From: Albugo candida
Taxonomy: Eukaryota > Oomycota > Peronosporomycetes > Albuginales > Albuginaceae
NCBI GenBank assembly: GCA_905220665.1
Contig: CAJNAR010000144.1
Coordinates: 124,001 to 188,000 of the forward strand
Length of the DNA: 64,000 bases
Direction of reading: 5' to 3'
The translations under genes and the position numbers were made by a program. The notes beneath the pieces were generated by a model. The model saw only the letters and a list, made by a program, of their open reading frames with translations. It had not been told where the DNA came from and did not search any database. This document shows positions 27,677 through 61,546 of this stretch, one piece after another. Each line of letters opens with the position of its first letter. Position 1 is the stretch's first letter.

Positions 27677-28501
27677 TTAAGTCGCTGGAGTTGTTACTTT
27701 GCTCGCAGTCGCAGATGGCCCGTATGTTTGTATACAATGATTTATGAGACAATTTTTAAATTTATCTTTTTCGTCATTTATAAGGCCAATGACGGTCCAT
27801 TCCGATGGCTGTGGTGTCGTAAGCTGAGCCTGTCCACTTAAGGATTTCTTTCTTTGCATTTTTGCGTAATTTTGTCGTGCACCCGGGTCTCTTGAATAAA
27901 GCCAATTTACGACAATTCCGTTTTCCCCAAGCTCGCTCTTTACAGTAGAACTGGAAGCACTACTGCTTGCCGGCGTGGACGGAAGGCGCAACACTGGATC
28001 CAGTGAATCGAGTACAAGTAGCAACACAGTGATACATTCCCATTTATTTTCCTTGGTCACGCCTATGTACGCCCACACGCCAGAACAAGGTTATGTATTA
28101 TATAGGCAAGAATTGTAAGTACTGCTTTTACCCTCCTTATCCAGGTTTTCTTTAATCCAGGTATGCGCCTTTATCGCTGCACTTTGATAAGTTGATGAAA
28201 GTTTTGGTTTCTGAAGAATGGCCTCGCATTGCGGGCGTTGATTTTTTGGTAAGGATTTCTTTTTTTTCTCAATATACTTGGGATCGTCAGAAGTGCGCAA
28301 ATCATATTCCAACTCGATTTGCTCTGATCGCTCCTTATAAACGGTTATGACGTAGTTGCACAAGTTTTGGAATTCCTTCTTTAACAGTATCTTTGGCTCA
28401 AGCTTACGGTTCTGCGCTCGACCATGCTTACCCATCTGCCGACTCGGATTGATCATCATGAATGCAATGATCCCTATCAGTTGAACAGCAATGTTGTTCA
28501 T
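27677..28501 (-). CDS. Candidate secreted protein, family member A
   Basis: Exons 28501-28132 and 28062-27677 join in phase (intron of 69 bp, GTAAAA...ACATAG) to about 251 aa. Residues 1-22 (MNNIAVQLIGIIAFMMINPS) form a signal-peptide-like segment with a short polar start and hydrophobic core. The mature part is highly charged (several KKKK-like runs, KKEFQNL, WIKENLDKEG). Exon 2 opens with GVTKENKWE, a brief hydrophobic patch and a Ser-rich stretch. Compared with member D the C-terminal KKKKN tail is lost by a small frame change. No RXLR, CHxC or LFLAK motif is visible. No known family. Secretion and an effector role are inferences from the leader, the accessory location and rapid divergence. 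Confidence 0.6.
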
Positions 28502-28780
28502 TCTTCTCTATTCGTCCAGACTGAAATGTTTAGCCGAAAGCGAATCGAATAATGGGCACTCAAAATTCACAAGGTAACTCGGAGGATGAGAGTGTGCTAT
28601 TTGCGAGTGTTCCATATTTAATACTGTACAACTTCGAGCCTAACGAAGGAACTACAGAAAACCTCTATACTTTTATTGTATCAGGACAAAATTAGGTAGG
28701 CTACGCCTTAATCAGGTGGAAACTCCTGGACAGGAAACGAAGACATGATGTTTGTGCTGCTTTGTTCATTCTTAAATGCA
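28502..28780 (-). promoter_or_regulatory. Conserved 5' flank of member A
   Basis: The 250-280 bp before the ATG match the flank of member D (61547-61830) at many blocks, such as agcgaatcgaa, aatgggcactcaaaat, gtgtgct and ttttattgtatcaggaca. That is as similar as, or more similar than, the coding parts, which points to a retained promoter or to recent copying. No defined motif can be named. Confidence 0.5.
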
Positions 28781-28899
28781 TGAAAAAGGATTCTCGAAAA
28801 TGCAAGAAACGAGGCAAATGAATAGGTGAAAATCTTGACCCGAGCAGGAAGTTAAAGCTTCGTCAACAGACATTTACCCGGTTGAGTTATTTTCGACTT

Positions 28900-29960
28900 C
28901 TGATTCCCTTATAAATCCTACATATTTCCCCAAGGCTTCTCACCTGCGCGTTGTTCTCAAATTTTCACCAAGTCGAACGCATCTCCGTACGATTCACAAG
29001 ATACTCCTACGCGATTTTGCAAAAGATACCACGCATTTCCTAAGCTTTTTGATAAAATGCGACTCATTTTCCTGAGATTTCTAATAAAGTTCCACGCATT
29101 CAAGTGTGAAGCCAACACTTACTCTCTTCGTTATCAAATTACAGCCCTGGTCGCTCCTTCTTTCTTTATTTACATTTACGATCAAAGTGTCAATGCTATC
29201 TCTACTGCTTACTGCCTATGCTATCATCAATAGAACATATACTGGTGACAAGGGAGTGGCTCTGCCACTTGGTCATGCATCCCAGTCCTCTAGGTAATTT
29301 ATATAATACATCCTTGTAGTACTTGTATACATCCATCCTTCCAGCAATAAGCATCTACGCCCTTCTTTTCTAAGATTGTAGCAATATGATTTCTAAGGTT
29401 GCGATGGCAGTAGCGATGTAACCAAGTCAAAAAATTCTAAACCACTTGCCGTACCTGCAGCATTCATCAGCGAGAACGAACACGCGCATCAGATGAAACA
29501 TGCTTGCTAGTCATTCGGCACTTTGCCACTTAATGATACTTCTTTTCTACCTTTTGCGGCTTTCGGTATTACCGATTATGGGTAAGTCATAATCACATAA
29601 TACCAGCTGTCAAGCAACTGAGTAGTTTATCGTTTCTATCCGCATCATACTCTTAAAACGCAATGTAATGAAATGTCTAAGGATTACATTAAGCTGCTTT
29701 ATTGGAGCTGTTCTTGATGTAATGATCTATCAGCCATTGTCAAATCAGAAGACTCATTACCAAGCCAGCACCGTTGTGTACCGTGTCGGGAAACAAGCGT
29801 CTTTCACTCGATTCTTGAGATTTGTGATTAACTCAATCACATGTGAATCGACTTGTTAGAAATTCTATACTTCGACCTGGGAAATCTTCCAGGTCTGTTG
29901 GTATAGGTTTTGCCCATTTGGCGCCATACAAATGGTATAAAGTGTCCATTTGGATGATCA
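28900..29960. repeat. Accessory repeat R, copy 1 (with degenerate minisatellite)
   Basis: This is the first of four main copies (others at 38.1, 52.1/54.6 and 61.9 kb). It opens with imperfect 30-40 bp units built on 'ttctaataaaatcc.acgcattt.cctgag', followed by a conserved block (tctcttcgttatcaaattacag, then tttacaattacgatcaaagtg-like sequence) and a segment coding a decayed frame with YQPLSN. It always lies on the 5' side of a candidate secreted gene. I see no intact gene inside. Confidence 0.7.
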
Positions 29961-32780
29961 TCGTATTGCATCAATTGCGTCTCTTCTTTTCCATGATTCG
30001 ATAGCAATCAAATTTGACGCGTACAGCTTCTTTTGAAGTTCATAAGAACACCAAACAGATAATCAATTTTTTTTCATATATTGCAACTGGATACTGAGAA
30101 ACTCACTCAGCATCAAGTCCACGAGCTAAGACAACCCTCTAGGATCCCTTATCAAGACGCTATGTACTCGCAGTCGAATTAGTGCAAGGAAATACCCAAA
30201 AAGGCAATCACTTGAAGGTTTGAGACGATAGCGGTCTTAGGCTCCCTTTTTTCGTGATTCTCACTGTACTTCACACATCAAGTGAGAAACATTTGAAATG
30301 GCTATATCAGTTCATTGAAAAACGAAGGTATTTTATCGCCTCTGCTTAGTAAATGCTCCATCAACAAGTGATGGGAAGTTGGTTAGTCACATTCCCGATC
30401 ATTGTTGTGATGAAGTGGCTTAGATTGGGACCATGATTCACGTCCAAAATCCCTGAGAACCATTTAGCGTGAGTTATTCCTCATTATTTGAAGCATGATC
30501 GGACCGTGCTTGTAATCACGTTGAAGAATATTGACTGTGTGGGAAAACCTTACTTCAAGTAAATATGTATAGTTCTTGATGCAGTGGGATTAGCTGGTAC
30601 CCTAAAGCAAATTTCCGGGCTTTGCTATAGCATGGCAATTACCGATTCTCAGAAGCTACACGGATGGGTTCTTCGGTAGTGAGGCTTTTCGAAATGTGAA
30701 AGAAAGACTTGGAAACCTCGCTCCACGCTTCTAAGTCGCTTGCTGACTACCTCAGCAGCCGTAAAACTACTCGCTGCAGCAGAGTCAACAATCGATAAAC
30801 ACCCACGCAATAGGAAGGCATGCCGAGAAACTGAGATATGGCATCATGAGCTCGAGGAATGACTTCATCTTGAATGTTCACTGGACCGTTCGCAATCATG
30901 AGTAATTATATCACCATGTTGAGTAGCATTTTGTTTTGTACAGCTCAAAGTTTAATTCGTTTGTGGAGAACTCGATACCGCTTTAGTATAAACATTACAA
31001 TTCGCTTCTACATTTTTCCAATGAAGCCGGAGAAAATCCTGCAGATATTCATGACATTATATGAAAAGAATGCTTGGATCTTCATCACCACTTCTGACAT
31101 TCGATTCACGTATTTAACGGCCTCCACTTTCATCGGTGTTTGATTTCATCCGGAAGAAAAACATATAGACCCACAATGCACTTACATACTTTATTCAATA
31201 TCGCATTCGTTCATCTTAATTGCCGAGTGGCCAAATCCCCGAACTAAATTCGTAAGATCAATTGTAATTATTGTGCTACTGGCTTTCATGAGCTTGAGCG
31301 CTGATTGTACGATTGATTGATCGCAGTAGAGCTCATTGATGCGTCCCAATAATTTAGTGATAATGGGGGTGTATCCAGCGCAAACGTATGAAATTGCTTT
31401 CGATGTGCCATTGAACAATGAGTACTATCTCTTCTGTGATACAGTACACTTCGGATGCCTCAGTAATGCTTTTCGATCAGAAAAAATAAGTCTTGAGAGA
31501 GGCCTCCAGGCATTTGGAGGTAATTATTTAATGGCTATTCGGAGAACAACGTTGCGAAACACTTGCGATTTTGTGCGATCTGGTACGCATTCGACAATCG
31601 TCCGCTCTTTTCTCACTGAAATCTGATGCTAACACATATACACAAAAACGGACGGAATGGGCAACAATTCAGCTGGAAATTGGGGAATTATGGTACAGTT
31701 TGCACAAGGGTTTGTAATTTTCCGAACTAAATTCATTTTGAGACACTTTACTACCACTCGTGAAGGAAGGAACCATACTATTGAAACTTGCTCCAGCATG
31801 TGGCCTTTGATTATGAGTCGTTGCTCATGCACTACCCTACCACTCGCGATATCAATTACGCATGGTCATGTTTATACAACATCATAGGATCGCTCTGTGC
31901 ATTTTGATGAGATAAAATATAGACAATAAGACCATATCGGAGTAGTTGACATGCATTAGCTCAAAGAATGCTAAAGACAGATGGAGAATTGCTGTACTGT
32001 ACATTCAATAGTCAGCACAGCCAAATACCGATAAATTTCCTAGTCGAATGATGAGTTGGCGTCGCCCTGAAAATCGTATCCACCTGATTGGCAGGGCAGC
32101 TGTTTACACGCAAATAAAGCTATGAAGCTACTATACTACGTCTGACACGATATTCAAGTAAACCTGCAAGCCGATGCTCTCTCCAGTTTTTGAAAAATAG
32201 CCTTTGAAAAATTGGGATGTACCCTACTGACCTTCGGTTCTTCCGAAGCGTATCGCTTGTGACCCGATGATGTGAGCGCATACTGAATCAATATCACCCG
32301 GTTCTTCCATAGCGTCTCCAATGTGTGAATTCAAATTTCACTAAGGCTGAACGAGGACGGTTGAGGATCGCCATACTCGACTATCAAAACAGCGCTACGA
32401 CTCGCTAAAATTTTCTTGCATGATTGGTATGCTGACAGGTGAGTCTTGGAGGTAACCTACGATTTGCTTTTCAGTATCATAAGCTTCTCATCATCACATG
32501 CAGCTGATCGAATCAGATTGGAAGAATTGTGCAGCGGTGTTGAACCTGGCGATGGCACGATTCGGAGAGCTGGTTCCCGCACTCAAGTTGAGAGTCAATC
32601 AAATGCTACGCCAGCCTCTGAATAAAATTTCGATGTGGATTGATCAACAAACCAATTCGCGGAACCTACCGTTCTGTATGTTCGAATTGATGCAAACGCA
32701 TCGCAACAAAAACTTTTGAGGTTGAAACTAATTTGATTCCTCATGTAAGGAACATAAACAAGTTACTCACCTGAGGAATG
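29961..32780. other. Accessory DNA without supported genes
   Basis: About 2.8 kb of low-information sequence. The longest frames are 31336-31626 (+, 96 codons from an ATG, starts MMRPNNLVIMGVYPAQ) and 31191-31418 (-, 75 codons). They overlap on opposite strands and match nothing I know. The codon pattern looks eroded and stops are frequent around them. Probably decayed gene copies. Confidence 0.4.
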
Positions 32781-33420
32781 ACAAGAAGAGTTTTTTTAGG
32801 CACATCAGAGAGACTTGTGCGCCATTACAGAGATTTAATCTCAACAACACTTTTCAGCATCTCATTTTGTATCTTGTCAAGCGGGAGAGAACCGCATCAG
32901 ACATATCATATGCGAAGATCTTTAGTCGGTCCTTACCAGAACTAATCTCAATCATGTGAACTTGCAACGCACTATGTAAACGTGGTAACGATCAACACGT
33001 GCGCATAAGTCGGACACGAGACTCCCTCTTTCTGGACCAAGCTCCACAATGTTGATAGTTCGGGTGATCCCATTTCTTTCCATGTGGGAATACACCAAAT
33101 TGCGATCAGACATTTGACGGATTTACGGAGCCGTGGTAAAGTCGCCCTTTACGCCGAATACGTCTTTCTTCATGTAATGCCCATGTGTAGGATGCGCTAG
33201 TGCCTTAAGTAGTTTGAGAGCGAATTGTACGAGCAAATTCACTCTTTGCATGTATTCTGCCACGGTTATCGGTCCTTTAACGTCGATCGAGCTACATAAA
33301 ATAGAAGCAAGCTCCTTCTATTGTCCGATTTCGCTTTCAAATCCAACGCGTTGTAGCTGTCATGACCAAAGTGTCCTGGGCGATTTCACTGCAGAATTCT
33401 CTACTTGTATATAAACGTAT
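32780..33420 (-). pseudogene. NDUFAF7/MidA-like methyltransferase remnant, copy 1
   Basis: Read on the minus strand, the DNA gives GPITVAEYMQ, a short intron-like gap (GTGAAT...CTTAAG), then ALAHPTHGHYMKKDVFG, a K-G-D-F-T-T-A-P segment and NIVELGPERGSLVSDL. This is the N-terminal order of NDUFAF7 (formerly MidA/DUF185), the mitochondrial arginine methyltransferase needed for complex I assembly: P-x-T-V-A-E-Y-M, H-x-x-x-G-Y-Y, G-D-F-x-T-x-P-E-I and L-V-E-L-G-P-G-R-G. Here a stop replaces the Glu after TAP, and the SAM-binding GPGRG has become GPERG. The downstream part is scrambled. No intact parent gene is in the window. Confidence 0.7.
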
Positions 33421-33959
33421 CGTTCGTCATTTTGGGGCACTTTGATGTCTTTCTTACACACAATGACTCGAGTCTGCGTGAACGAATCGGTGGTTTTTAT
33501 CGAGGCTGAATGAACGCGTGAGAACGATTGAATAGCGTCTTTATAATGTCGGAATCGGAACCACATATATTTGTATTTTCAGACTCAGATCAGTACAGCA
33601 ATGGACTAGTGTCAGACTAAGGTCGAATGCGATCATGTAGGTCTCCAAGACATTCCATGCGATTTAGACTGAGCGCATACAAAAGTACTTTCGAAAGTTT
33701 CGATACGATCAGCAGAAATATACCGTTTTCAGGTAGCAGTATTCACATTCAGCAGTCACATCGCATAGTACCAGCTTCTTCCAGGCATGTTTGAATCGCT
33801 GCGTTCAAAGTCGATATGAAGTTTCATGTAGCATCCACTCCATGGAAGACTATAAAAGGCTTCCATTTTGGTCCTTCTGATCAATTGCTTGTTAGGCAAA
33901 GTTTCGTGCAGATGTATACCCCAGATGTGCGCTTTAACGGGTTTGGCTACTCTTTAGGT

Positions 33960-35500
33960 AGACGGCAATTACATCGATCTCCTGGGCAGCTTTGATGTAT
34001 CATACACTTCACAAACATGCAGAAATGCTCACCGCAGAGGTTGCATTGGAGAATATCCAGCAATATGCAGATTGTCAGTTTCTCAAGCTACTCAGCACTG
34101 AGGAAGCGCTGTTTTAAACGTTGAATGATCATGCATATTGAGTCGGCTGATGCTGAAATATCTTTTGAGTGTGCAATATTCGTTAATTTAGCTATCGTTT
34201 TGTAAAGAGCACTATCTTACAGTGTTAAGTGTCCAAGGTTTAGAATGATATGCGATACAGAATCGAACTATTGCAACATTTGAAGTGATGCTACTGAAAG
34301 ACACTTCCGCCATAGACCTGGAAAGGATACTGAAAAATTAGATGATTCGTAGCAACTGAGATTTAAAATCCTCTTCTTCTCTGCTTAAGCATTAAATCTT
34401 CTATGAGTGTCCGCGAGAAGACTTGATCTACTTGAAGAAGCACAAGTGAATTCCATCTACAAGCCCAGGTCATTGTGCCTTGAAGGACTATCACCCCAGC
34501 CAAACATCTTGCTACAACCACGGGAAATCAAGAGCTATTTCAAAATGGGATGCAAACTAAGGAAGAGCGATGAATATTATGGCGACAGAGAAGACAAAAA
34601 GCGCAGAACAAATGCAGGAATACTGGGTTGAAAGCGGGATATGATGCTTTAGGTGTAAGCTCAACAGAATCGAATTCACAAAGCGATGGAATTGAAAGGA
34701 ACTGGCAGACTTTAATTGACGATGAAAAGAGCAAGAGCATCAACAGAGGACATGGTTTGTAGAATGCAGCAAATGAGATGGTCGCATGTCCTTCAACCCT
34801 TTCACCGTACCGAGTCTGTGAAGTTTGAAAAATTCGCTGCATTACTTCGGATACTTGCAATAGATTTCTACAATATTTTTGCTATATCGCTTTGACAAGA
34901 GACGCATTTGCCGTGGGAAAATGTATCCGTTTGAAACGAGCAACTTTTGTATTGATTTTGACTGCGTTTTACGTCGATACGGAGATCAATCATATTGGCT
35001 TTGTTACTTTTATTGCTCTCTGATAACAAATATCACGAGCCGAAGAGTGACTAAAATATCTGAATTGGGATTGGTCGTCCATTCCGGTGGAAAGCACGTC
35101 AAGTATTCATCCAGTCCACCAAATGCCTCGACATCCGCACTCTTCACGTCGATCTTCCGTCCGAGAGGTCCTATTGGTACGTCTCAATGGTTCACTTAGT
35201 ACCACGTACGCCAGCGAAGCTTGGCTGAATATACTTATAGCTCCCTCTGAACAGCAATACACGAATTTGCGATGAGTACTTTTGATTACAAATTCACTTG
35301 CATAACGATTGAATCAGTGGTTTGGCTCGGCATTTTCGCTCATTTTTTTCAGGTATGTAACGAAGCGATCCGAATCATTCACTTAAGTAAACACAAGCTG
35401 AGCTATTCGCGACATGATAGCAATCCGTCAACGATTATACAATCGAAGAAGAGTTCAATTCAAGCAGGTTGCGCGTACTTCAGCGATTGTAACTAAGAAT
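33960..35500. repeat. Accessory repeat D, copy 1
   Basis: This segment is paralogous to 39830-41360 and, in part, to 49200-49460. Shared blocks include aagagctatttcaaaatggg / aagagctttgccaaaatggg near 34530 and 40450, ggtgtaagctcaacagaatc near 34650 and 40570, and a frame ending KHKLSY...HDSNPSTI...SDCN at 35.4 and 41.3 kb. The copies share coding-like patches in changing frames, so it probably derives from a gene that decayed after duplication. I cannot name it. Confidence 0.6.
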
Positions 35501-36850: not shown

Positions 36851-36920
36851 GAACCTAGTTTTTCGCGTTGTGCCTCCTATTCTTCTGTTGTTTGTCGCAG
36901 TTGATGTTCTTATCGCTTGT

Positions 36921-37792
36921 CTACCTGTGTGTCTCATACCATGGCTTTGATAGTAGCGTGATCTTATCCTTGAGATCGTCTCCATCTACTTTGGTGTCTA
37001 TTTTTCTTCGCAGTCCTTTTCTTTTCTTTTTCTTGCCGGCGTTGACGCACTCATTGCTTGCCGACGCTTGTGTCCACAGTGATGCCTCCGTTTGTGTCAT
37101 GAACTCCTCCTGCCCTTCGTCTACATCGTTACTGTTCGTATCCCTCGTATAGACGACTTTCCCATTACTTGCCGGCGTGGTTGGCTCGTCCATTTGGCTT
37201 ACTAATCTTTTCAATTCGTGCTCGAGTTCCTCTATATTCATCCTGGCTACTGAATTTTTCCGCAGCTCTTTATCTTTCATTTTCTTTTTGGAACTGACCA
37301 TCTCATTGTTTGTAAATTTGGATGCCCCATCAGCCTCGTTCGATCGTATCGTGAGCTTGTTCATGGAGCTTCTTTCATCTTCAGGGGGTCCGTATACGTC
37401 TTCCCATACGCGAGAAGAAGATTGTTTGCAAGCATTTCTTTTCCCTTGTCGTATCGCCTCTTGCTGATACCCTACCCAATTCCTCAAAGCTTGAACTAGG
37501 TGTACAAGAGATTTAGGTGGTGAATCTATACATGCCCGGACAAAAGAAAAGAGTGGGATTCAGTTAAACTTTCCAATGTTGGCAATTGTACACAACCTGT
37601 ACCTATGCAAACGATGCAAGCTTTCATTTCGCCATCTACTTTCTCAATAAGGGGCATCCAGAAGGCTTTCTGGTCATCGGGAAGCTTTTGCTTTAATAGT
37701 TCAAGTTCGCGAGCCAACTCTGGTTGTTGCTGACTCGAATTGAACATCATGAACGCGATGGTGGCGAGGTATTGAGCAGCAATGCGAGTCAT
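36921..37792 (-). CDS. Candidate secreted protein, family member B
   Basis: Exon 1 runs from the ATG at 37792 to about 37603 and exon 2 from 37525 to 36921; the phases agree (about 264 aa), though several nearby GT donors exist. The first 20 residues (MTRIAAQYLATIAFMMFNSS) form a signal-peptide-like leader, closest to member C. The mature region starts with Glu/Leu/Lys-rich helices (ARELELLKQKL, about 27-37). Exon 2 has a W-V-G-Y segment, Glu/Lys-rich coiled-coil stretches (MNIEELEHELKRL) and a Pro/Thr/Ser patch. A basic tail (NAGKKKKRKGLRRKID) resembles a nuclear-localisation stretch and is shared with C. It has no RXLR motif. Function unknown. Confidence 0.6.
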
Positions 37793-39760: not shown

Positions 39761-39829
39761 TGTAGAACAATCAGCTTGCACAGAGACGGATGTTCTAAAA
39801 GTCTTAAATGCTTTAGAAACATGCAAAAA

Positions 39830-43305: not shown

Positions 43306-44655
43306 AGAAGAGTCAGAAGAACCAGATCTTGTTCCAAAAAAATTCATTGATATCCCGCGATGCAAGCTGGTTATGTCTTCACAGACGACATAAATGGATG
43401 GAGCGCTGCGTAGGCGGACCTTTGCCCTGCTATCAAACGTCCGATTTATAGTTATAACCACTACAATTACCATATATAAAGGTCGTAGAGCCACTGTAGT
43501 CAATGTTGAATGTAATCGGACGCATCGCCAGACCCAATCACGAGCCAATAAGGAAGTAAGTTGATTTTGAAATGAGAATGTCTGTCAAACAATCACTGTT
43601 TCAAATAGACTTTTGTAGATTATATTCTGTGATGGTGCGATCAACTCACCTCAACTCTTACTGCTATTTGGCGTGGGCGATGCTGATCACTTGAAGCAGG
43701 TCGATGTACCACTCGTGCATCATGTACCGGCTGTTGGACAAAATCGTGAAGATCATCTAGACCTTTAAGTTCAATATGAATGCACACAGCCGATCACATT
43801 GCATCATGCGACTTGGTACGAATCCAATCGTCTCGTCCTGTTTTGACCTGATTACTTCTCGACCGAATTAGAAAATATCCTCATAAAATGTTCCAAATCG
43901 CTTTGGAATGGCTATTTTTTCAGACTGGCTGGGGTGCAAGCGCTCATCTCGAATCAGGTGGATTTATTCGAAGGTATTCTATCGAATGCTTGAATGTAAT
44001 CCATCCTGTTCTTATTGTGCTCTGTAGTGCGCCAGGCAAATGTCAGCCCGAATTGCAGTAACATTTCTTACCAGGAGCGCTTACTGGACAACTGGTTTTT
44101 CGAAACGTGCACGCAATGAAACACATTGTTCTCCAATGCGAGCAACCAGCCGTAGATCTATTGAGCTCCAAAGCGCTGACCCCCACGCCGATCCGATCAT
44201 CGAGCCGAATGATCTTGACACCTTACAGACTCCCATATATTCGATCTGCTGCTCCACTAATTCGCTAAGCATTCGAGCAGGAGGGCTTCGATGCATACCA
44301 TGGGAATCCAATTCCATCAAACTTAAATGTTCAATTAGATGATGAAATTGATGCGTGGGTCCGTCAGCATGCGAAGAGCGCGTACCATCCCTTCTGCACG
44401 AATCGTTTAGGATCAGAATCTGATTTTGCCATAGATCCTCACATTCGGGTTTGCGGGGTCGATGGTGTAGGGATGATCGATGCGTTGGTGATGCCAAACA
44501 TCATTAGTGGGAAAGTAAATGCTCGGACGATCATGCTCGTAGAGAAAGAAGCCGATATAATAGTCGGGAACGAGCCGCTCAAAAAGAAACCGTACCAGTT
44601 TATGAGCCACCGAGCTGAAAAGATTCGCAATGATAAAGAGCTGCACAAAACATGA
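43306..44655 (+). pseudogene. Choline dehydrogenase, decayed copy 2
   Basis: It starts inside exon 1 of the intact gene (the N-Q-K-N-Q-I-L-F-Q-K segment) and continues to the C terminus with introns in the same places. It has frame changes in exon 1 around 43340-43400. The FAD-contact segment of the C terminus is altered (LNAPTIML to VNARTIML). The active-site HPSC has become HPFC, the Arg-Met of NRMG is NRLG, and 44215-44300 carries small deletions. The N-terminal FAD motif is missing altogether. It cannot make an enzyme. Confidence 0.85.
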
Positions 44656-44689
44656 CTTTTTATTTGTAATTGAGTATATCTTTTCCGGC

Positions 44690-45001
44690 TTAATCAAATT
44701 TAGAGTCATCACTACTCGAATCAGATTCTGAGTCTTCACTGCTTGAGTCGCTAGAGCTACTGCTTTCACTCAACGTATGATTCTTTGATGTCGTAGTGGC
44801 ATCTTTAGTCGGTGGTTTCTCGCGATTGAATGGCTGACGTAATTTCGGATTTCGAAGTTGTTGCGACCGCGAAGCTCGGACTCGATATGCTGGTGTGTTT
44901 TTGCATTCATAAGTCCAGTGCCCCGACTGCAGACATTTCTGACATTGTCGAGAAGATTCTAGAGATGCGTTTTGTCTCGCACGCTTTCGTGCGGGATTCA
45001 T
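44690..45001 (-). CDS. ZCCHC10-like zinc-knuckle protein (intact copy)
   Basis: An open frame of 103 codons from the ATG at 45001. The N terminus is basic (MNPARKRARQN), then a CCHC-like knuckle reads CQKCLQSGHWTYECKN (Cys-x2-Cys-x4-His-x4-Cys), followed by PAYRVRASRSQQLRNPKL and a tail of alternating Ser, Asp and Glu. This order is that of ZCCHC10, a small nuclear protein of poorly known function. It lies tail-to-tail with the decayed choline dehydrogenase copy 2. The frame stays open upstream of the ATG, so a longer form or an upstream exon cannot be excluded. Confidence 0.7.
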   Translation of the reverse strand: MNPARKRARQNASLESSRQCQKCLQSGHWTYECKNTPAYRVRASRSQQLRNPKLRQPFNREKPPTKDATTTSKNHTLSESSSSSDSSSEDSESDSSSDDSKFD

Positions 45002-46387
45002 TAAGCTTGATAGAATCCAGCGGTTTGATTCGTGTAAAATACTTTTTCTATAGGGAGGATTGGCGGAAAAGGATGGAGTTATTAATCGATTGTGTATCGC
45101 TACAGCTTTCAAGGAACACATTCATTCGGCTGGTTATGTTTTGTTGTGGTGTTATCAACAAAAGGCAAGTGCATTCGATGTTCAGTGTGTTTATTGATTC
45201 AAAGAAACTCACGTCAAAAAAAAGAGTGCATCACTCCCATTATTGATAAAGCAATATCTTTATCCACCGCTCAGGATTGTTACGCTCAACGCAACAACTG
45301 GCTCATTTGGCGAGCAATCCAAAGTGATTGGAAATCTCAATATGATACCAAAAGACAGCGATGGAATAGAAAATGTTAATTTTGCTTGTTACAAACGAAA
45401 GCAGCTAACGATATATCGATGTAAGGTGAATTGAACTACTGCTCGTTTTCTAGAATATCGGGGCTATTCGTACCGGCTGAAAAAAATCATCGACTGGATG
45501 TTGATTTCTCCCTCAACAGCACTATGCAATCAATTCTTTTGTATGTATACGTGGCTTTATGTATCCAGTGAACCCGTACCATGTGACAAAGCGCACGGAT
45601 GAGGGCCTATCGGTGAGAGGAGGGACCGCATCCAACAATAATATACAGGTCGTCTGCCAAAATATAAGTGTAATCCGAAGAGATCCTATATTGTGAGAAA
45701 ATTACGGCGGAAAGAAATAGCGTGAACAAGAAGTTGGACTTGTCCAAATCAAATTTGTTGAGGCATATAGCGGTGAGGAAGAAGAAATTGTTTCTCACAC
45801 AGATTTCAACAGCATAAAAGGTAAAGCCTTGCACCATTGATCCTATCATCAGTTACAGTTTGGGAAGAGATTCTACGCAATTGTTAACCAGGTATCAGTC
45901 ATGAAGCATGTTTCCCTACCCACTATTGGTGCCAGACACTACTTTGATTGGTGGACGTTCATGAAGGAAGCCAAACGAATTTATACAGAGTCGATACATC
46001 TTTATTTAATACTCTTCCATGTAGCGAAGGAGCTCACAAATCAAACACAATGCCGTCACGCGACTACAACGATACAGCGAAACGGTGACCTGTATATATT
46101 ACACAAAAGTCAAACCACTTGCCGTCTCTGGACGCAAGGGACGATAATTAGCATAGCGGATGTATCGATGGAGACCGTCCGTACCATCTAAACGACCACG
46201 AGTTATGGTTCACTCCAAGGACATTCGAACTACGTTTTGCTGCTTTTAGCAATTGTGGACCAATCAATGCGGTATATAAACCCTATTTTAGGGAGCCTTC
46301 AAAGAGGCCGACTTGTGGAATATGTACATGAAAACTATCTTTTACATTCGCATCAAATAGATTATAAGTACTGTCCCGTGAAGCTAA
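45002..46387. other. Accessory DNA without supported genes
   Basis: It contains the presumed promoter of the ZCCHC10-like gene. Short frames (45243-45434 +, 45607-45849 -) have coding-like composition but no recognisable family or consistent splicing. No repeat unit was matched. Confidence 0.35.
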
Positions 46388-49190: not shown

Positions 49191-49199
49191 CATCTTTAA

Positions 49200-50900: not shown

Positions 50901-50902
50901 AG

Positions 50903-51914
50903 CTAAAGAAGCAAGATAAAAGGTTTCATAGTGCTTTGCACTTTTAAGCGGAATACCCTAAAAAGTGGATATATTGTATGATACACAGGTTGGTTTTGTG
51001 TCATCAACTTGAATAGAAAGAACCTAGTTTCACCTTTTCTATCCCCTGTTCTACTTTTTTTTACCTTTCGCTCTCTTGTTGGATTGACATTCTTATCGAT
51101 TGCCGATGTCTTTGTCTCATGCGAAGGCTTTGGTGGTAGCGTGATTTCTTTTTTGATCTCCTCTCCATCTTTCATGTTGTCTGGCTTTTCACGAAGTCCT
51201 TTGCCTTTTTTTTTCTTGCTGGTGTTGACATTCTTATTGCTTGACGACAGACTCATCTCGTGGATATGCTGAAGAATATGAATAACAGTTGGATCTTCTA
51301 AAGATATCATTTTGGTGACTGGAACGGCGAATCCAGGGTTTGACGAGGTGGATGGCTCATCCGATTGCGTTGGAAGTGTAGTAAGCACCTTGACGCAATT
51401 TTCCAAATCTTTGTTGATTGCGTCTGAGTATGCTTACACGCGAGGAGAAGATCATGATATAAATATACATTTGGAAGCAGTACTTTTACCGTTTTGCGAC
51501 GCCAATTTCATTAGCGCTATATAATGATCAGCGATGATATGAAAGAATTCCTTGGAAGGCTGCGAGAGCAGCCCAATTGTAGTTATGTAACAGAGTATAT
51601 ATGAACCCTCATCTAAATATCGATGCATATACATACAGATCTGAACCTGTATATGTATCGATATTTAGATGAGGGTTATATATATACTCTGTTACATAAC
51701 TACAATTGGGCTGCTCTCGCAGCCTTCCAAGGAATTCTTTCATATCATCGCTAATCTGCTCGGCCTTAGAGCCCGAAAACGTCTGTGAGCGCTTTGAATT
51801 TACCACATTTTTCGATACATGTTGCTGACTCGAAGTGATCATCTTGACTGCGATGAATGCGATAATCACCAGGTATTGGCTGGCATTATGAGTTATTCTT
51901 GTGAATTCGTCCAA
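50903..51914 (-). pseudogene. Candidate secreted protein, family member C (broken)
   Basis: Exon 1-like sequence (51908-51640) aligns with member B but the start codon has changed from ATG to ATA, and no other ATG precedes the hydrophobic leader; the first in-frame ATG lies after it (MITSSQQ). A fold-back palindrome interrupts the gene downstream of the leader and removes the normal exon junction. The exon 2-like part (about 51435-50903) keeps a long open frame with TSSNPGF, the shared NTSKKKKGKGLREK basic patch and IKKEITLPPKP. As it stands it should not yield a secreted product. It is grouped with B as one subfamily. Confidence 0.65.
51529..51753. repeat. Fold-back inverted repeat, arms about 105 bp
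   Basis: The left arm (51529-51632) and right arm (51649-51753) are reverse complements with only a few differences (a 2-bp indel near the centre and 1-2 substitutions), around a 16-bp loop. The right arm is the native coding sequence of member C (minus strand, D-M-K-E-F-L-G-R-L segment). The left arm repeats it on the opposite strand, so the same peptide can be read on plus at 51540-51600. It would extrude as a cruciform or give a long RNA hairpin. Confidence 0.9.
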
Positions 51915-52079
51915 TGTGAAATATGTGGTGAGAATGAGTGTATCGAAAAATGAGAAATCAGATTCTAGTCAGATAAGTAACCGGAGAAAAAGAGAGTGAT
52001 ACTTGCAATGGTATTTCATATTTAGTGCGACTTCGAATCTAACAAGTACCCACAGGAAACCTGTATAATGCTATTGAGC

Positions 52080-52365: not shown

Positions 52366-54624
52366 GGAATTGCTATTTCCACCCATCTTTTTGCTATATC
52401 CACCCACCAATGTAATTTTTTGACCAATCAGATTATGACGTTATTACCACACCAATTTTTACTATTTCCACCCACCTTTTTATTATTTGATTGGGCAAGA
52501 TTAGTATGTGCAAATTCAGTTTTTCGTTTTACTTTGCTCACCTGCATTTTGCCTACAAGATGAAGATAGTGTTGAAATCTTCGTGGGACATTTTCGCAGA
52601 TCATGTCCCTCCCTGTTACATTTTTTACATCGCCGCTTAGGCTTCATTGCATACTCAAATGCTGACGGTTCGCGATTTGTTGATGAATTGAGAACCTTAT
52701 TTTGGGCCCCAAGTGGACGTCCTTTCGCCTTCACGACAGAAGGTTCAGCAAGGACTGAAAATTCCCACTTACCAATTCCAAAATTCTAGCATGAATGATT
52801 GACTGTTGGGCTGGCGAACATTTTAAATAGCGGCTTTCCAGTGCTTTCAACTAGAGCTCGATGTTGTTCGGCATCATGGAAACTTGCTTGGCCCCTTCCG
52901 TTATTGCATTGTAATTAATGTCACCTAGGTGCCAATGCTGGTGGATCAATGTTAAGGGTATGGGGCTGTTACAAAGATCACGGATTTCATGCACACATGG
53001 TAATCCCATAGTACTCCGCAACGTATGACTGCAGGCATTCTTCAAAGCCTCTTCCGGTCTATTAAATTCCTCTTTGATTTTTTTCAGAGCAAAAACGGAG
53101 ACGCGTCCAACCAGCTGCTCATAACTTACACTACCACGGAATACATGTGGGATTCGGATGCGCTCGCTAGCAATTTTTGCTTCAAGCTCCCGGGCTTGGT
53201 GCTCAATGGCTTGCTTCATTCTTGCCTGAACAATCCAGATTTCCAGTAGATGTTTGTAGGTACCGCTTCAAAGCTGAATGCGCTCCTTCAACCGCCTACG
53301 TCGAAGTATTTTGAAAATGCATCACCTTGTCTGTCCAGGCACGCACAAATTTTGCTTTATGCGGAATCCAGGTTTTCTCTAAATAGCTGACAACGTCCAA
53401 TTTTCCAGCATACTTAAATTTAAATGTACTCCATCCTGCATCATTGTTTGCAATTGTCTTTAATCTCTAAACATTTGTCCAACTTTCCAATAAATCCTCC
53501 CATTCCTCGTTTGTGCCAAATTCTTTCTTGCAATTTGCAACTACATTTTTTCGATGTGCCACATGCATAGGAGATGTGCGCAGTCCGGAAATATTTCTTC
53601 AATGGCACCAGCTAGTGTCAAGTCGCGATCTGTCACCAGAGCGTCTGGAGTTTGTACCAACATGTTTCGCAACTGCTCAAGTGCCCAGTTATAATCTGCC
53701 CTCCCTGATAAAAATGCAAAGGCCAAGTAAAATGTTGAGTTCATTCCCGTTCGTCCAACAATGCTCAGCAGAGGCATCCTGAATCTGCTCTTTGTACGTA
53801 CAATCCAAGAGAAGAATCCCACAATACCGGCGAGCTAAACGGATGGATGTTGGATGGGCCATGAACAATTGTGTGACGCACCCATCACCGGTGGTTTTTA
53901 CACTATACGTCCACGTGCTCGATGTGAGTTCATCCATCAAAGCCTGGATTGGGGACCTGCCTTCCAATTCCTTCAGACGACATTGCGCTTTGGCGCTGTA
54001 GAAGGTTTTCGTCGAAGCCAGAGATTCGGGAAATTCACGACGCATAGAGTTAACCCCTGACGTGCGGAAACTCCAGCTGATACGAGTTCCTGTACGCGGC
54101 CCTTTTCTTCTTCAGTTATTCTTCGGCATCCTGGGTGCCCAGTCATACTCTCTAAAGGTTCATGATTGTGTTAGATGTTGCGCATTTTGACCTTCCAGCA
54201 ACCATCTCCGTTTTTCTTTCCAAATGCCTCCCAAGGACACCCCTGCAGTCTGGCTCCTGTTTTTCGTGTCTTTCCCTCAACGTTTCCAGCAGAGCGTCTC
54301 CTATACTCCCCACCAAGATCACAAGCAAGCAAAACTCGCCTGTCTCCATCTGAACGCTTTATTGACACCCCATAGCCAGACTCACGACACACGTGGCGAA
54401 CGTGTTTAATGAGATCACAACGAGTGGCAAAAGATTGGTTGCAATTGATGAAATAGGACATTGATAAAGGTGGGTGGAAATAGTAAAAAGTTAGGTGGAA
54501 ATAACGCCGTAATCTGATTGGTCAAAAAGTCACATTGGTGTGGTAATAACGTCATAATCTGATTGGTCAAAAAAATGGATTGGTGGGTGGAAATAGCAAA
54601 AAGATGGGTGGAAATAGCAATTCC
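52366..54624 (-). mobile_element. Mutator-like (MULE) DNA transposon
   Basis: The 2.26-kb element has terminal inverted repeats beginning ggaattgctatttccaccc on both ends. Nested subterminal copies of the 'ctatttccaccca' and 'ttgaccaatcagattatgacg' blocks extend about 140 bp inward. The flanking 10 bp, aaaaataaag (52356-52365) and cagaataaag (54625-54634), agree at 8 of 10 positions and fit a Mutator target duplication. The inside encodes a MULE transposase with FAR1-like, DDE, SWIM and zinc-knuckle parts on the minus strand. It is inserted in repeat R upstream of member C. The imperfect target duplication and internal frameshifts indicate an old, inactive copy. Confidence 0.88.
52516..54461 (-). 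pseudogene. MULE transposase, frameshifted
   Basis: Pieces in order on the minus strand: an N-terminal Cys-containing domain (54461-54171, RCDLIKHVRHVC); then 54045-53689 with RYCGILLLDCTYK, where the first catalytic Asp lies in LLDCTYK; a one-base frame change near 53793; 53822-53541 with SRFRMPLLSIVGRTGMN, ALVTDRDLTLAGAI (second Asp) and CAHLLCMWHIEK, the core of the MULE domain. Then 53219-52851 has a SWIM-type CxHx tail (MGLPCVHEI), and 52734-52516 has KGRPLGAQNK plus a zinc knuckle CKKCNREGHDLRKC. Stops between 53541 and 53219 also interrupt the frame. No functional enzyme is possible. Confidence 0.85.
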
Positions 54625-55990
54625 CAGAATAAAGTCCTATGCGTTTTCCTCCAATTTCTAACAGAGTCTAACACGTTTCCCCTAGATTCCTTATAAGGTC
54701 ATACGTGTATTTCTGAAATTCCCAGCAACTTCCATGCTTTTCTCCGGGCTTTCTAATAAAATCCCCTGATAAATTCCCACGCGTTTAAGTGCAAACTTCA
54801 ACATCTACTCTCTTCGTTATCAAATTACAGGTCTGGTCTCTTCTTCTTTTCTTATTTACAATTACGAACAAAGTGTAACAATGACATCCATGCTCCTTTC
54901 CGCCTAGGCTATCATCAATTGCACCTATATTGGTGGCATAGGAGTGGCTATGACACTAGATCCTATATCACAGTCCGCTAGATAATTGATGTAATACTTG
55001 TGATACTTTCTATTATTATTTCAAGTCTAAGGACGCGGTGCCAGTAGCAATATAACAAGTCAAAACCTATTGTCTACCTACCGTACCTGCAGCATTCGTC
55101 GCCGAGTACGAATGAGCGCATCAGATGAAACATGGTTGCTAGTCATTCGGCCTCTTACCAGTTGGTAATGCTACTCTTTTACCTTATGCTGCTTTCGGTA
55201 CTACCGATTGTTCTCGATTTCTGATCGCAACGTTACCAGCTCTCAAGCAGCTGAGACACCGTATAGTTTTAACCCGCATCATAATTCTACGCAATGTAAT
55301 GAAAAGGCTGTGGACTACATGGGGATGCTCAATCGGTGTTGGCCTTGATGAAAAAGTCTATCAGCCATTGTCGCCAAGATAGCACACCACCAAGCCATCA
55401 CTCAAACCTAGCGTTTCGCGAAACACGCTTCTCTCATTCGATTCTTGAGAAGTGTGATTAACTCAAATCACGAGTTTTTTTCGACTTCCTCGAAATTATA
55501 CATTTCGATCCAGGAAATCATTTAGCTGATAATGAACTAAATTTGTCCGTTTGCCGCCATATGCGTGTCTAAAATGTCGATAGAAATGAAATTGTGGATG
55601 ATGCACGGACACAACTACGTCCACTATCAACTTCCCCCATAAGCCTACTAGGCGCAGTTTACTGCAATAGTAGTCATTCTAGCGCATGCTAACTTTATAT
55701 TTGTCCGGTGCTCGTAATTATTGACATCTGTACGAGCACACGTATGTCAATATTTACAAGATAATTCATCACATGCGCGACCAACGATGCACGGCATAGC
55801 CGTAATCTTGTTGCTCAGGCGCTATACGGATCGAATGTGTCAACTACGTAGACTATACACGCACCCTGTTCAGACTGTGTGCTTTCAGACTCCTGAAGGC
55901 AAAACATCCATTGGGCTCATTTACTTATTAGCCGTGTAATAAAGCTGCAACAACTCCGCATGAACAATCGAATTGAGGTCACAATAAACA
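54625..55990. repeat. Accessory repeat R, copy 3, right part
   Basis: It resumes the minisatellite (atttctaacagagtctaac, ctttctaataaaatcc) and continues with the conserved ctcttcgttatcaaattacag block near 54820. From 55640 on it matches 62930-63290 almost base for base (gcctactaggcgcagttta, gcgaccaacgatgcacggca). The latter part is therefore shared only with copy 4 and leads directly into DAHP synthase in both. Confidence 0.7.
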
Positions 55991-55999
55991 GAAAAACAC

Positions 56000-56073
56000 T
56001 TATCCATGCAAATTACTTCGTTAAGGATATAAACAATTATCCATGCAAATTACTTCGTTAAGGATATAAACAA

Positions 56074-56096
<23 letters not shown>
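56000..56096. repeat. 37-bp tandem repeat at DAHP synthase 3' end, 2.6 copies
   Basis: Units start at 56000, 56037 and 56074 (ttatccatgcaaattac, then ttcgttaaggatataaacaa); the third is partial and includes the DAHP synthase stop codon and last residues. The other DAHP synthase locus (63309-63368) has only 1.6 units, so a copy-number change occurred after duplication. Confidence 0.85.
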
Positions 56097-57440
<1,344 letters not shown>

Positions 57441-57487
57441 TGCACCAATTGATAACTCGGCAAGATGCTTTTTACTCCTCTTACGAC

Positions 57488-57676
57488 CTAAAATGTCTGA
57501 AACGCTCCTTGACGACCAAGAAGATATCCAACAGCGCCAAAACTTCCTGCAGTCAATAAATATAAAGTTGCAGCGAATATCCCAGCGCCGATGGACACCA
57601 TACTCGTGACTGCTTCAGTTCGTCCATTCATTTTTGTTAGCACAACGCTTTTGGCCCACCTCATAGTAACTTTCAT
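57488..57676 (-). CDS. Possible short membrane protein or exon
   Basis: An ATG-led frame of about 62 codons with one strong hydrophobic, Gly/Ala-rich helix (VSIGAGIFAATLYLLTAGSFGA) that could span a membrane. It ends GRQGAFQTF. It could be a first exon or a small mitochondrial-type protein. It lies just upstream of the broken DAHP synthase on the same strand. I recognise no family and no splice partner, so this is tentative. Confidence 0.3.
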   Translation of the reverse strand: MKVTMRWAKSVVLTKMNGRTEAVTSMVSIGAGIFAATLYLLTAGSFGAVGYLLGRQGAFQTF

Positions 57677-57884
57677 ATCTAGCACCCCTCACAGATACAT
57701 ACTCACTTAAATCTAAATATATTGTTTGACTCGAAAAGCGTCAGTTTCCACGGCAAAGCACAGTGGATGAAACGTTGGTATATTGTTGCGAGTGTTTCGG
57801 TCACTTTGATCAATGGAGTGCGAATTAATCACACCTCTCCCAGAGACGCACGCTCTCCCTCACTCACTTCAATTAGAATTGAAT

Positions 57885-58355
57885 GAACTTCCAGCTGCAA
57901 ATCTCAAAAAACCACTGACCGTGTCGAAGGTCTTCAGGCTTAAAGCAGGACACGATGCTTCATCAGCACGCTGGAGTGTTGACAATATCTTCAGGAGAGA
58001 ACGATCGTATATTTTATTGGCATTTTGAGGCTTATTAGAATCCCGAAACAGCTCCACTGCTAATTTGGCTGAATGGAGGTCCAGGGTGCAGCAGCATGGA
58101 AGGTCTTTTCTAGTAGGTGCTATGCATACAAAAATGATATTTGGTTACTTACTTTTCGTAATGATTGTAGTGGAATCTCACCGTTCTTTTTAAAGAACGA
58201 CCAAGATATTCGACTGAATCCGCATTCCTGGTTGAATACAGCCAATTTGCTGTTCCTAGATCAGCCTGTGGGCACCGGGATGTCGTACACACACAGAAAT
58301 GAGCATAGCGTCGATGAGGAAACAACCGCCAAAGACTTTTACGATTTTTTATGCC
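57885..58355 (+). pseudogene. Serine carboxypeptidase (S10) fragment
   Basis: The plus strand gives HAGVLTISSGENDRIFYWHF, a stop, then PLLIWLNGGPGCSSMEGLF: the S10 signature around W-L-N-G-G-P-G-C-S-S. A predicted intron (GTAGGT...GATTGTAG, about 58113-58175) follows. Next come PFFLKNDQDIR, NPHSWLNTANLLFLDQPVGT and GMSYTHR, the usual 'NxxSWxxxANLLFLDxPVGxGFSY' block; the catalytic Ser region lies further on and is absent. The fragment ends in KDFYDFL, where it joins choline dehydrogenase sequence. One in-frame stop and the truncation make it non-functional. Confidence 0.85.
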
Positions 58356-59843
58356 GGCCGCATTGACGTACAATTTGGCCAAGGATAGATACAATTGGTG
58401 CTACAACACACAAGCGCAAAGACATTTGAACAATCGTAGACTATCGTGGCCGTGAATACGCGTGCTCGGCGGTTCGTCCTCTATCAATGCAATGGTATAC
58501 ATTCGAGGTCACGCAAAGGATTATAATAATTGGGAGAAAGTGGTGCAACAGGATGGAGCTATGCCGATTGTCTACCGTACTTTCGTAAATCACAATCGCA
58601 TTCTTTAGGTGCGAATGCGTATCGTGGAGGATCAGGTCCTTTACATGTCACACGTGGGAATCAGAAGAATCAGATCTTATTCCAGAAGTTCATTGATGCC
58701 GCGATGCAAGCTGGTTATCCATTCACAGACGACATGAATGGGTATCAGCAAGAAGGATTTGGCTGGATGGACATGACCATCCACAAAGGATGTCGTTGGA
58801 GTGCTTCACAGGCGTACCTTTGGCCTTCTATCAAACGTCCAAATCTAAAAGTCATCACCAATACAATGACCACGAAAATCGAGTTTCAAGGTCTTCGAGC
58901 CACAGGAATTAGTGTTGAATGCAACTAAGTTGATTCTGGAATACAAATGGGTGTCAAACATCAATTGACTGATGTTACTATTTGTAGATCATTCTCTCTG
59001 GCGGTGCGACCAACTCACCTCAACTCTTACTGCTGTCTGGCGTGGTCGATGCTGATCACTTGAAGCAAGTCGATGTACCACTAGTGCATCATGTATTGGC
59101 TGCTGGACAAAATCTTGAAGATCATCTAAACCTTTACGTTCAATATGAATGCAAACAGCCAATCACATTGCATCGTGCAACTTGGCACGAATTCAATCGT
59201 CTCGTCCTATTTTGACCTAATTCTTTCTCGCGCGATTAGGAAATATCCTCATACTCTGTTCCAAATCGCTTTGTAATGGCTACTTTTCCAGACTGGTTGG
59301 GGTGCAAGCGCTCATCTTGAATCAGGTGATTTATTCGAAGGTATTCTCCTGATGTTAGATATCTTCCGTCCTGATATTGTTGTGCCTCTTGCCCATCCGA
59401 TCATCGACCCAAATTACCTTGACACCTTACAAGATCGCATCGATATTCGAGCTGCTGTTCGACTAACTCGCGAAATATTCGAGCAGAAGGGCTTCGATGC
59501 ATACCGTGGGAATGCAATTTCACCAGACGTTAATGTCCAGTCAGATGAAGAAATATATGCGTGGGTCCGTCAGCATGCAAAGAGCGCGTATTATACCTCC
59601 TGCACGAATCGGATGGGATCGGAATCTAATTCTGACGTAAATCCTTACCTTCAAGTTCACGGACTCGAATGTTTACGGGTGGTCAATGCGTCGGTAATGC
59701 CAAACGTCGTTAGTGGGAATTTGAATGCTCTGACGATCATGCTCAAAGAGAAAAGAGCCGATATAATACTCAAAAGTGAGCCGCTGGTCAAAGAAATCGT
59801 ACAAGTTTATGAGCCACCGAGCTGGAAAGATTCGCAACGATAG
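58350..59843 (+). pseudogene. Choline dehydrogenase, decayed copy 3
   Basis: It begins at ATGCCGGCCGCATTGACG of exon 1 (codon about 77 of the intact gene), directly after the carboxypeptidase fragment. Differences from the intact gene: CGAGGA to TGAATA makes a stop in the PRGRV signature; a base is lost near 58538. About 40 bp with the exon 1 donor are deleted at 58926. One base is missing in the SGGFIR segment near 59330, and about 160 bp of exon 4 are lost at 59388. From there to the stop at 59843 the frame is open and close to the intact gene. It cannot be functional. Confidence 0.88.
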
Positions 59844-59879
59844 AGAATTTCACAGAACATGATTTTTTCATTAAGAATT

Positions 59880-60120
59880 ACCTTTCTCTTGAACGCGAAC
59901 TCGAACTTTTACTAGACTCAGATTCCGAGTCCTCACGACTAGAATCAGCTTCTGAGTCTTCACTGCTTGAGTCGCTGGAGCTACTGCTTACACTCAAAGC
60001 TTGGGAGGTTTTGAGGTCGTAGTGGCTTCTTTAGTCGTTGATTTCTCGCGATTGAATGGCTGACGTAACTTCGGATTCCAAATTTGTTAAGACCGCGAAG
60101 CACGCACTCGATTTGCTGGT
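59880..60120 (-). pseudogene. ZCCHC10-like remnant, copy 3
   Basis: The Ser/Asp/Glu-tail DNA and the 'NRE...NPKLRQP' region are recognisable on the minus strand next to the decayed choline dehydrogenase, as in the other two units. The zinc-knuckle part is missing beyond about 60120, where the sequence switches to the segment shared with 27.2 kb. Confidence 0.6.
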
Positions 60121-60235
60121 GTATTCATGTATCTATCATCCAAGAAATCATTACCGAATCTAATGTTAATTTTTAGCATAAGTGCGTTAATCCTCTATTT
60201 TGGTGTATGGCGGGCCCCCGGTATATCCCTTCTTT

Positions 60236-60610
60236 ACATATGCGAGCGAGAAGATTACCAGTCGACAATGTATGCACACAAGTTCTCATTTTATAGTGTT
60301 GTCTTACAGCTTCTCCTGGCGCTGCACTGATGCTTCTTCAAAGCGTAGAGGCAGCAGACGAAGAATCTTATCTTGGGAAGGCAATGGAGCCAAAGGAGGA
60401 CATGCAAGATGAGATAGTCACGATAGTATGAGAAAGTATGGCATGTCGTGAAGGAGGCTTTTCATAAAAACTGGCGACGATAATATAGCAATTGCCACTG
60501 CAAGAGGTGGTCACTGCATCGAGACTAAAAGTCCTTAAAAAAACATCGCACTAGAGAAACCATTATAGAAGGTTGTAGTGTGCTTCGCACTAATTGGAGA
60601 AAGCGTATAT
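60236..60610. repeat. Shared accessory segment, copy 2
   Basis: Counterpart of 27236-27600; the same block order and similar length. It precedes member D as copy 1 precedes member A. Confidence 0.7.
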
Positions 60611-60699
60611 CTGCTCAAAAAGCGAATGTATTTGACGGTTCATCATTTATTTTGTGCTACCGACTTGGACCGAACGACTCGTTTTCTCACTTGGTGTCG

Positions 60700-61546
60700 C
60701 TAGTTCTTCTTTTTCTTCCCCTTCGTCTTATTGCTGGAGTTAATATTCTTGCTCGTAGTCGCAGACGGCCCATCTGGTCGCTTTGAAGATGCTGTGAGTT
60801 CATCCTGCAGCTCCTCTCCATCGTCTTTGGTGGATGGCTTTTTATTCATTGCAGCCGTGTGTATCCCATCCGATGACCGGGGCAGTGTCGTGTGCTGACC
60901 TTGTTCGATAGGGGTTTTAGGTAGATACAATTTCACGTACCTTTTTTTTATTTTCTCGTATCGTTTATAAAGAGTCCGAGCCTGACCAGTTTCCTCTATG
61001 ATCCTAGCTTCCTCTTTGCAACTCTGCTCACCTTCAGCGGAAGTGGAAGTCTCCTCGCTTGACGACGTGGATGGGTCAACGCATGGATTTGTTGCATAAA
61101 GGTTTTGGTACAACCAATTGATGTATTCTTCTTTGTCTTGCCGGGTCACGCCTATGTACGCCAGGACAACGCTAATTATTATATAGATCAGAATTACAAT
61201 TACTGTTTTTACCGTTCTTATCCAAGTTCACCTCCAGCCACATGTACGCCGTTGCCGCTGCATATTTCCGCATGATTGAGAGTTCTGGGAATTTTGGGAT
61301 AGATGCTTCCTTAACTAAGCCATTGAATCTTTCGATCGTATCCTTTGTTGCGTATGGGAACTCATGGAAGCGCTTTTCTTCACGAACGCGAATTGCGAGC
61401 TCGAGCTCGATAACAGGTCTTCTTCTTTTATAATCGTCTATCATACTTTTGGACACCTCATTCTTCGACACTTGATCCGTCTGCGAACTCGAATTGATCA
61501 TTATGAATGAGATGATCCCTATCAATTGAACAGCAATGTTGTTCAT
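60700..61546 (-). CDS. Candidate secreted protein, family member D
   Basis: Exon 1 (61546-61213) and exon 2 (61151-60700) join in phase (intron of 61 bp, GTAAAA...ACATAG) to about 261 aa. The leader MNNIAVQLIGIISFIMINSS (residues 1-20) is nearly identical to member A. The mature part has charged helices (ELAIRVREEKRFHEF) and WLEVNLDKNG at the exon junction, where A has WIKENLDKEG. Exon 2 starts GVTRQDKEEYINWLYQN, has a Ser/Glu-rich patch (STSSSEETSTSAEGEQ), a YKRYEKIKKRYVKLYL basic helix and ends in KTKGKKKKN. No RXLR or CHxC motif. The intact start, splice sites and tail suggest this is the best-preserved member of its subfamily. Function unknown. Confidence 0.65.

What the first reader, a model, noticed from the sequence alone, without database searches (positions are those of the whole stretch)
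27677..61546. Four-member family of unknown, probably secreted two-exon proteins in a duplicated block
Members A (27677-28501), B (36921-37792), C (50903-51914) and D (60700-61546) share strand, a two-exon layout, a leader of the type M-x-x-I-A-x-Q-x-x-x-I-I-A-F-M-M-x-N-x-S, charged helical middles and, in B, C and D, a Lys-rich end (GKKKKRKGLR / KKKKGKGLR / KGKKKKN). A/D and B/C form two subfamilies. The leaders and splice positions are better kept than the mature parts, the usual sign of fast-evolving secreted proteins. No RXLR, CHxC or LFLAK motif is seen. In an oomycete pathogen this could be an undescribed effector family with basic, possibly nucleus-targeting tails.
Basis: partly seen in the sequence, partly recalled or inferred. 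Interest (0 to 1): 0.85.

Follow-up and report, generated by a model that had tools for sequence, protein, structure and literature searches.

The report
White-rust protein family, conserved ends
A plant-infecting white-rust microbe, very probably Albugo candida, carries a clustered family of genes, many of them damaged, whose predicted proteins keep a signal-like start and a lysine-rich end but change quickly in between, as expected of proteins sent out to the host plant.

Summary
The four relatives are real, but the description needs correcting. The genome is very probably Albugo candida: a same-family protein record is named so. Members share a 22-residue hydrophobic leader and a lysine/serine-rich tail. 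The family is larger: 15 leader-bearing loci plus two fragments, 12 of the 15 within about 167 kb of one contig. Six of 15 give models running from leader through tail. A is open but stops before the tail; C is broken.

Splice positions are not shared: A and D use one intron, B another, and B reads as coding DNA that resembles its relatives' intron. DNA identity falls from 0.79 in the leader to 0.51 behind it; shuffled sequence gives 0.47. Against database relatives, change concentrates in the middle and spares the tail in four of eight comparisons; three are too close to tell and one leans the other way. No known domain, solved structure or relative named from another species was found.

Best reading: a lineage-restricted, fast-evolving candidate secreted effector family. 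Secretion and expression are untested; nuclear targeting is weakly supported.

The parts
27677..28501 (-). Member A: exon 28132-28501, intron 28063-28131 (69 nt), exon 27677-28062; 251 codons, ends before the basic tail
36921..37792 (-). Member B: exon 37603-37792, intron 37526-37602 (77 nt, upstream intron position), exon 36921-37525; 264 codons, KKKKRKGLRRK tail
50903..51896 (-). Member C, broken: leader-like stretch without an in-frame ATG at its start (51831-51896), intron-like stretch about 51424-51489, open tail frame 50903-51310
51526..51756 (.). Near-perfect inverted repeat inside C (77-nt arms, 99% complementary, with a further 30-nt pair inside)
60700..61546 (-). Member D: exon 61213-61546, intron 61152-61212 (61 nt), exon 60700-61151; 261 codons, KGKKKKN end
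28436..28501 (-). Leader of A (22 codons)
37727..37792 (-). Leader of B (22 codons)
61481..61546 (-). Leader of D (22 codons)
60703..60912 (-). Conserved C-terminal tail of D (PIEQGQ... to the Lys-rich end)
24968..26900 (+). GMC oxidoreductase gene pieces beside A, duplicated beside D
58351..59843 (+). Partial GMC oxidoreductase copy beside D (PF05199 in 59352-59843)
56074..56939 (-). Partial DAHP synthase copy in the repeated block

Best explanation
A lineage-restricted, clustered family of small proteins in Albugo candida, most likely secreted and acting at the host interface. Shown here: a constant 5' part (untranslated region plus a 22-residue hydrophobic leader), a shared lysine/serine-rich C-terminal tail, and a rapidly changing charged middle; expansion by local duplication and inversion together with neighbouring gene pieces; many copies damaged. 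Inferred: the leader is a cleavable signal peptide; the tail does one constant job, most simply electrostatic binding or localisation; the middle is the part that meets host targets or immune receptors and is diversified by selection and/or recombination between copies.
For: Leader identity is 0.79, the 60 bases before it 0.68, the next 66 bases 0.51, shuffled 0.47 (10 members, 45 pairs; C, F, J, O, P not included). The leader core occurs 14 times genome-wide, at 12 family loci and the 2 C109 copies, and nowhere else within 3 mismatches. In 8 comparisons with database relatives, 4 have significantly more change in the middle than in the tail: D/P0008 24 of 79 against 1 of 70; L/P0009 10 of 46 against 1 of 86; I/P0010 26 of 98 against 9 of 86; I/P0012 36 of 74 against 2 of 31. 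Long spliced frames are not expected by chance. No Pfam model reaches its cut-off for the family proteins scanned, NCBIfam gives only one E=0.057 match, and there is no significant PDB match. The 10 database proteins found are unnamed ORFs except one named Albugo candida. The cluster begins where a stretch of ordinary conserved genes ends.
Against: No signal-peptide predictor was run; hydropathy puts the 10 leaders tested among the top 0.2-10.7% of 421 chance ORFs, B and L least. Purifying signal is weak: leader pN/pS 0.67; tail dN/dS between copies 0.35-1.38 over 28 pairs. One comparison goes the other way (B/P0011: tail 17 of 43, middle 8 of 38, p=0.09) and three are too close to tell. Nine of 15 loci lack a full leader-to-tail model, so much of the family may be decaying. 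A conserved tail could reflect gene conversion. No expression data.
Confidence: 0.6

Rival explanations
1. Relic family: a once-functional gene duplicated with its neighbours and now mostly decaying; the varied middles reflect loss of constraint, and the conserved ends reflect recent shared duplication.
For: Nine of 15 loci lack a full leader-to-tail model, A among them; many tail dN/dS values lie between 0.6 and 1; neighbouring GMC and DAHP copies are also partial.
Against: Six loci keep frames running from leader through tail; for the six two-exon models 0 of 2000 shuffles each stayed open. The middles of four database relatives stay open while differing at 22-49% of sites. Eight copies keep the tail frame open, though these eight were taken because an open tail was found.
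Confidence: 0.25
2. Non-secreted nuclear or nucleic-acid-binding proteins of the microbe itself; the Lys-rich tail is a nuclear signal and the leader a hydrophobic helix or anchor.
For: K-[KR]-x-[KR] runs in B, D, E and I; the leader of B and L is only moderately hydrophobic.
Against: No such run in L, and only KKER in E. The leader is the best-kept of the five 5' stretches compared. Behind the leader the most hydrophobic 19-residue stretch averages 0.39-1.10 in five of six models and 1.58, borderline, in A.
Confidence: 0.12
3. Open frames carried by a mobile element.
For: MULE transposase domain at 53541-53834 and many repeats in the block; C holds a large inverted repeat.
Against: Only 14 leader-core matches in 38.9 Mb, mostly clustered; copies travel with GMC pieces over kilobases, as in segmental duplication; no transposase-like match in the family proteins.
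Confidence: 0.03

Closest known systems
CCG (formerly CHxC) effectors of Albugo (PMC10087428 and PMC3130010, passages)
   Same: Albugo; candidate secreted proteins; polymorphic between races with frequent pseudogenes; for recognised CCGs the part just after the signal peptide is what is recognised
   Different: No CX2CX5G or CHxC match in any of the 6 two-exon models; 0-5 cysteines in the mature parts; lysine-rich tail; most copies in one locus
RXLR / RXLQ / Ac-RXL candidates of Albugo (PMC3206522 and PMC4384639, passages)
   Same: Leader followed by fast-evolving sequence
   Different: No RXLR, RXLQ or LRxL match in the 6 models
Crinklers (CRN)
   Same: Oomycete effector class; Crinkler-like genes are reported in A. 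candida (PMC3206522 and PMC4384639, passages)
   Different: No LFLAK-type motif, no Pfam match over a cut-off
Unnamed A. candida protein record (P0009)
   Same: 90% identical to member L over 81% of its last exon; tail differs at 1 of 86 positions
   Different: Its aligned part begins within the last exon and it carries no leader, so it would not be scored as secreted

Membership tests
CCG/CHxC effectors | CX2CX5G (or CHxC) motif after the signal peptide | tested here: not met
   No match in 6 of 6 two-exon models; B has a CxxC without the rest
RXLR/RXLQ effectors | R-x-L-R/Q within about 100 residues of the signal peptide | tested here: not met
   No match in 6 of 6 models
Crinklers | LFLAK-type motif | tested here: not met
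   No match in 6 of 6 models
Fast-evolving secreted effector family (general kind) | N-terminal signal peptide, no other transmembrane helix | tested here: inconclusive
   Hydropathy only; SignalP/TMHMM not available
Fast-evolving secreted effector family (general kind) | Conserved leader, variable mature part | tested here: met
   for the leader against the part behind it; middle against tail in database relatives: 4 of 8 comparisons significant, 1 leaning the other way
Fast-evolving secreted effector family (general kind) | Positive selection (dN/dS above 1) in the mature part between races | not testable with these tools
   Only protein letters of the database relatives were available
Fast-evolving secreted effector family (general kind) | Expression during infection | not testable with these tools
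   No transcript data
Nuclear-targeted proteins | Classical nuclear localisation signal in all tail-bearing members | tested here: not met
   K-[KR]-x-[KR] in 4 of the 5 tail-bearing two-exon models (B, D, E, I), E only KKER; none in L; K not tested

The most novel reading that the evidence does not exclude
The family is a diversification locus: constant leader and constant basic tail frame a middle that is rebuilt in each copy by recombination between copies and by switching the same DNA between intron and exon (B reads intron-2-like DNA as coding; I probably reads intron-1-like DNA as coding), so that new host-facing middles arise behind an unchanged secretion and tail module.
Probability: 0.15. 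Interest if true: 0.65.

Novelty: new member of a known kind. Interest (0 to 1): 0.42.

Why it matters
Albugo candida races differ in the Brassicaceae they infect, and the effector work seen here centres on the CCG class. A second, motif-free family with constant ends and changing middles would add candidates for race-specific recognition. The one named database record found lacks the leader, so secretome scans based on such records could miss the family. The intron/exon switching, if transcripts confirm it, would be a concrete case of new coding sequence arising inside a fast-evolving gene family.

Tried and rejected
Rejected: four-member family (more loci); shared splice positions; C as a gene; RXLR/CHxC/CCG/CRN membership; mobile element as the main explanation.

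Led nowhere: Pfam, NCBIfam and PDB searches. Two structure predictions from alignments of 2 and 3 rows gave mean pLDDT 47.7 and 47.8, too low to search with, so no fold search was made; the helices they show are only a hint. A full-length profile search, in which only the 7989 candidates sharing most words were scored, returned four ORFs already found. PF05630 (NPP1) gave no match in the genome, nor in any of the 14 controls, so that absence proves nothing. Seven paper searches (listings and starts of abstracts) listed no paper that, as far as seen there, describes this family; the 2022 Ac2V long-read paper is not held, so a description there cannot be excluded. PMC10087428, PMC4384639, PMC3206522, PMC3130010 and PMC12503489 were seen as passages only.

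Full report
Where it is. The window is C142:124001-188000 of a 38.9 Mb, 196-contig assembly, about 42% G+C. It has 21 matches to the elicitin domain, 20 over the curated cut-off, and none in the 14 control genomes. A protein 90% identical to family member L over 81% of its last exon is named Albugo candida in a public record. Published A. candida assemblies are 33-34 Mb with 43% G+C (PMC4384639, passages). I take it as Albugo candida; the race is not known.

What is there. C is broken: its leader frame has no ATG before residue 43 of that frame, and a 231-bp inverted repeat sits in the gene. Searching the genome with leader DNA, leader protein, tail protein and a 27-nt leader core gives 15 distinct leader-bearing loci: A, B, C, D, E (C142:224.0 kb), F (243.5), G (252.6), H (264.7), I (283.4), J (286.7), K (291.6), O (319.1), L (933.9), M (C18:94.1) and P (C171:386.3). 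There are also two leader fragments (C142:243.0 and 287.2) and second copies of A and B on C109, a 22 kb contig that matches this region at 98.7-99.7% and is identical over A and B. Twelve of 15 lie between C142:152 and 319 kb. The tool warns that such counts are lower bounds.

Which look intact. B, D, E, I and L run from leader to basic tail with one intron; K does so with two. A is open but stops before the tail. G, H, M and O give open models that end early or leave the tail's frame (226, 149, 122 and 177 codons at best). C, F, J and P are broken in or near the leader; P was judged from its translations only. So six of 15 are full by this measure, before any transcript evidence. For each of the six two-exon models, 0 of 2000 dinucleotide shuffles kept the body open.

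Anatomy. The first 22 codons are near-constant (consensus M-x-x-I-A-V-Q-x-x-G-I-I-A-F-M-M-I-N-S-S-R-Q). DNA identity is 0.61 at 120-61 bases upstream, 0.68 at 60-1 bases upstream, 0.79 in the leader, 0.51 in the next 66 bases and 0.46 after that, against 0.47 for shuffled stretches (10 of 15 members). The tail is a lysine/serine-rich module shared by both subfamilies: B and C match at 46-55%, C and L at 32% with E about 1e-4. Within the leader, pN/pS over 45 pairs is 0.67; over 28 pairs of eight tails (B, C, D, E, G, I, L, M, taken because an open tail was found) dN/dS ranges from 0.35 to 1.38. That is weak constraint, not strong.

Introns. A, D, E, I and L use a downstream intron of 61-69 nt and B an upstream one of 77 nt, all in phase 1. 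K uses both. Intron-2 sequence was sought with three probes in seven further members. It is clear in G, H, K and M (0 of 300 shuffles reach the score with any probe) and weaker in C (0-31), F (0-23) and B (1-6). In B it lacks the splice signals and is read as coding. Member I reads as coding a stretch that resembles intron 1 of H, K and M (1-2 of 300 shuffles) but not of B (227 of 300). So the same DNA is probably exon in one copy and intron in another; without transcripts this stays an inference.

Evolution. Protein-database searches returned 10 distinct proteins. P0006 is the window's own D exon apart from its first residue, and P0005 contains L's last exon unchanged. I compared the other eight with their nearest member. 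Four show significantly more change in the middle than in the tail; three differ at 1-2 sites, all in the middle; one (B/P0011) shows more change in the tail, not significantly (p=0.09).

Surroundings. The first 23 kb of the window hold ordinary conserved genes (valyl-tRNA synthetase, Ras, UPF3, p24, TauE). From about 23.5 kb (C142:147.5 kb), near a tyrosyl/tryptophanyl-tRNA synthetase piece and the GMC oxidoreductase gene, it is a patchwork of direct and inverted repeats reaching C142:294 kb in the 194 kb compared, with partial GMC and DAHP synthase copies and a MULE transposase domain.

Mechanism. Best supported: duplicated, quickly diverging secreted proteins acting at the host interface. 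Secretion is inferred from the leader; hydropathy places 10 leaders in the top 0.2-10.7% of 421 chance ORFs. The nuclear idea is weak because L lacks and E barely has a classical signal. AlphaFold models are too poor to use (mean pLDDT below 48).

Known or new. No family model over its cut-off, significant PDB entry or relative named from another species was found. It fails the motif tests for RXLR, RXLQ, CHxC/CCG and Crinkler. A 2011 assembly paper reported a largest secreted family of six members in A. candida (PMC3206522, passages), and a structural survey found the CCG class to be the largest cluster of its secretome (PMC12503489, passages). In kind it is familiar; the family itself I could not find described in seven searches of the held open-access papers, with the main 2022 Ac2V paper not held.

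Noticed in passing
24968-26900, 43399-44911, 58351-59843: GMC oxidoreductase gene pieces duplicated beside members A and D and once without a family member.
   Followed up: partly
56074-56939, 63346-63777: Partial DAHP synthase (PF00793) copies in a repeat about 82% alike.
   Followed up: partly
53541-53834: MULE transposase domain on the minus strand.
   Followed up: no
51526-51756: Near-perfect 231-bp inverted repeat inside broken member C.
   Followed up: partly
about 32658-33935 in the window, against contig C109: In the second block compared (C109:6363-22426), all 54 differences from the second copy fall in this pocket; the rest of that block, including member A, is identical.
   Followed up: partly
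44690-45121: Short zinc-knuckle protein (PF13917) with a Ser/Asp-rich end, overlapped by an open frame on the other strand.
   Followed up: no
6801-8705: 634-residue open frame without a Pfam match.
   Followed up: no
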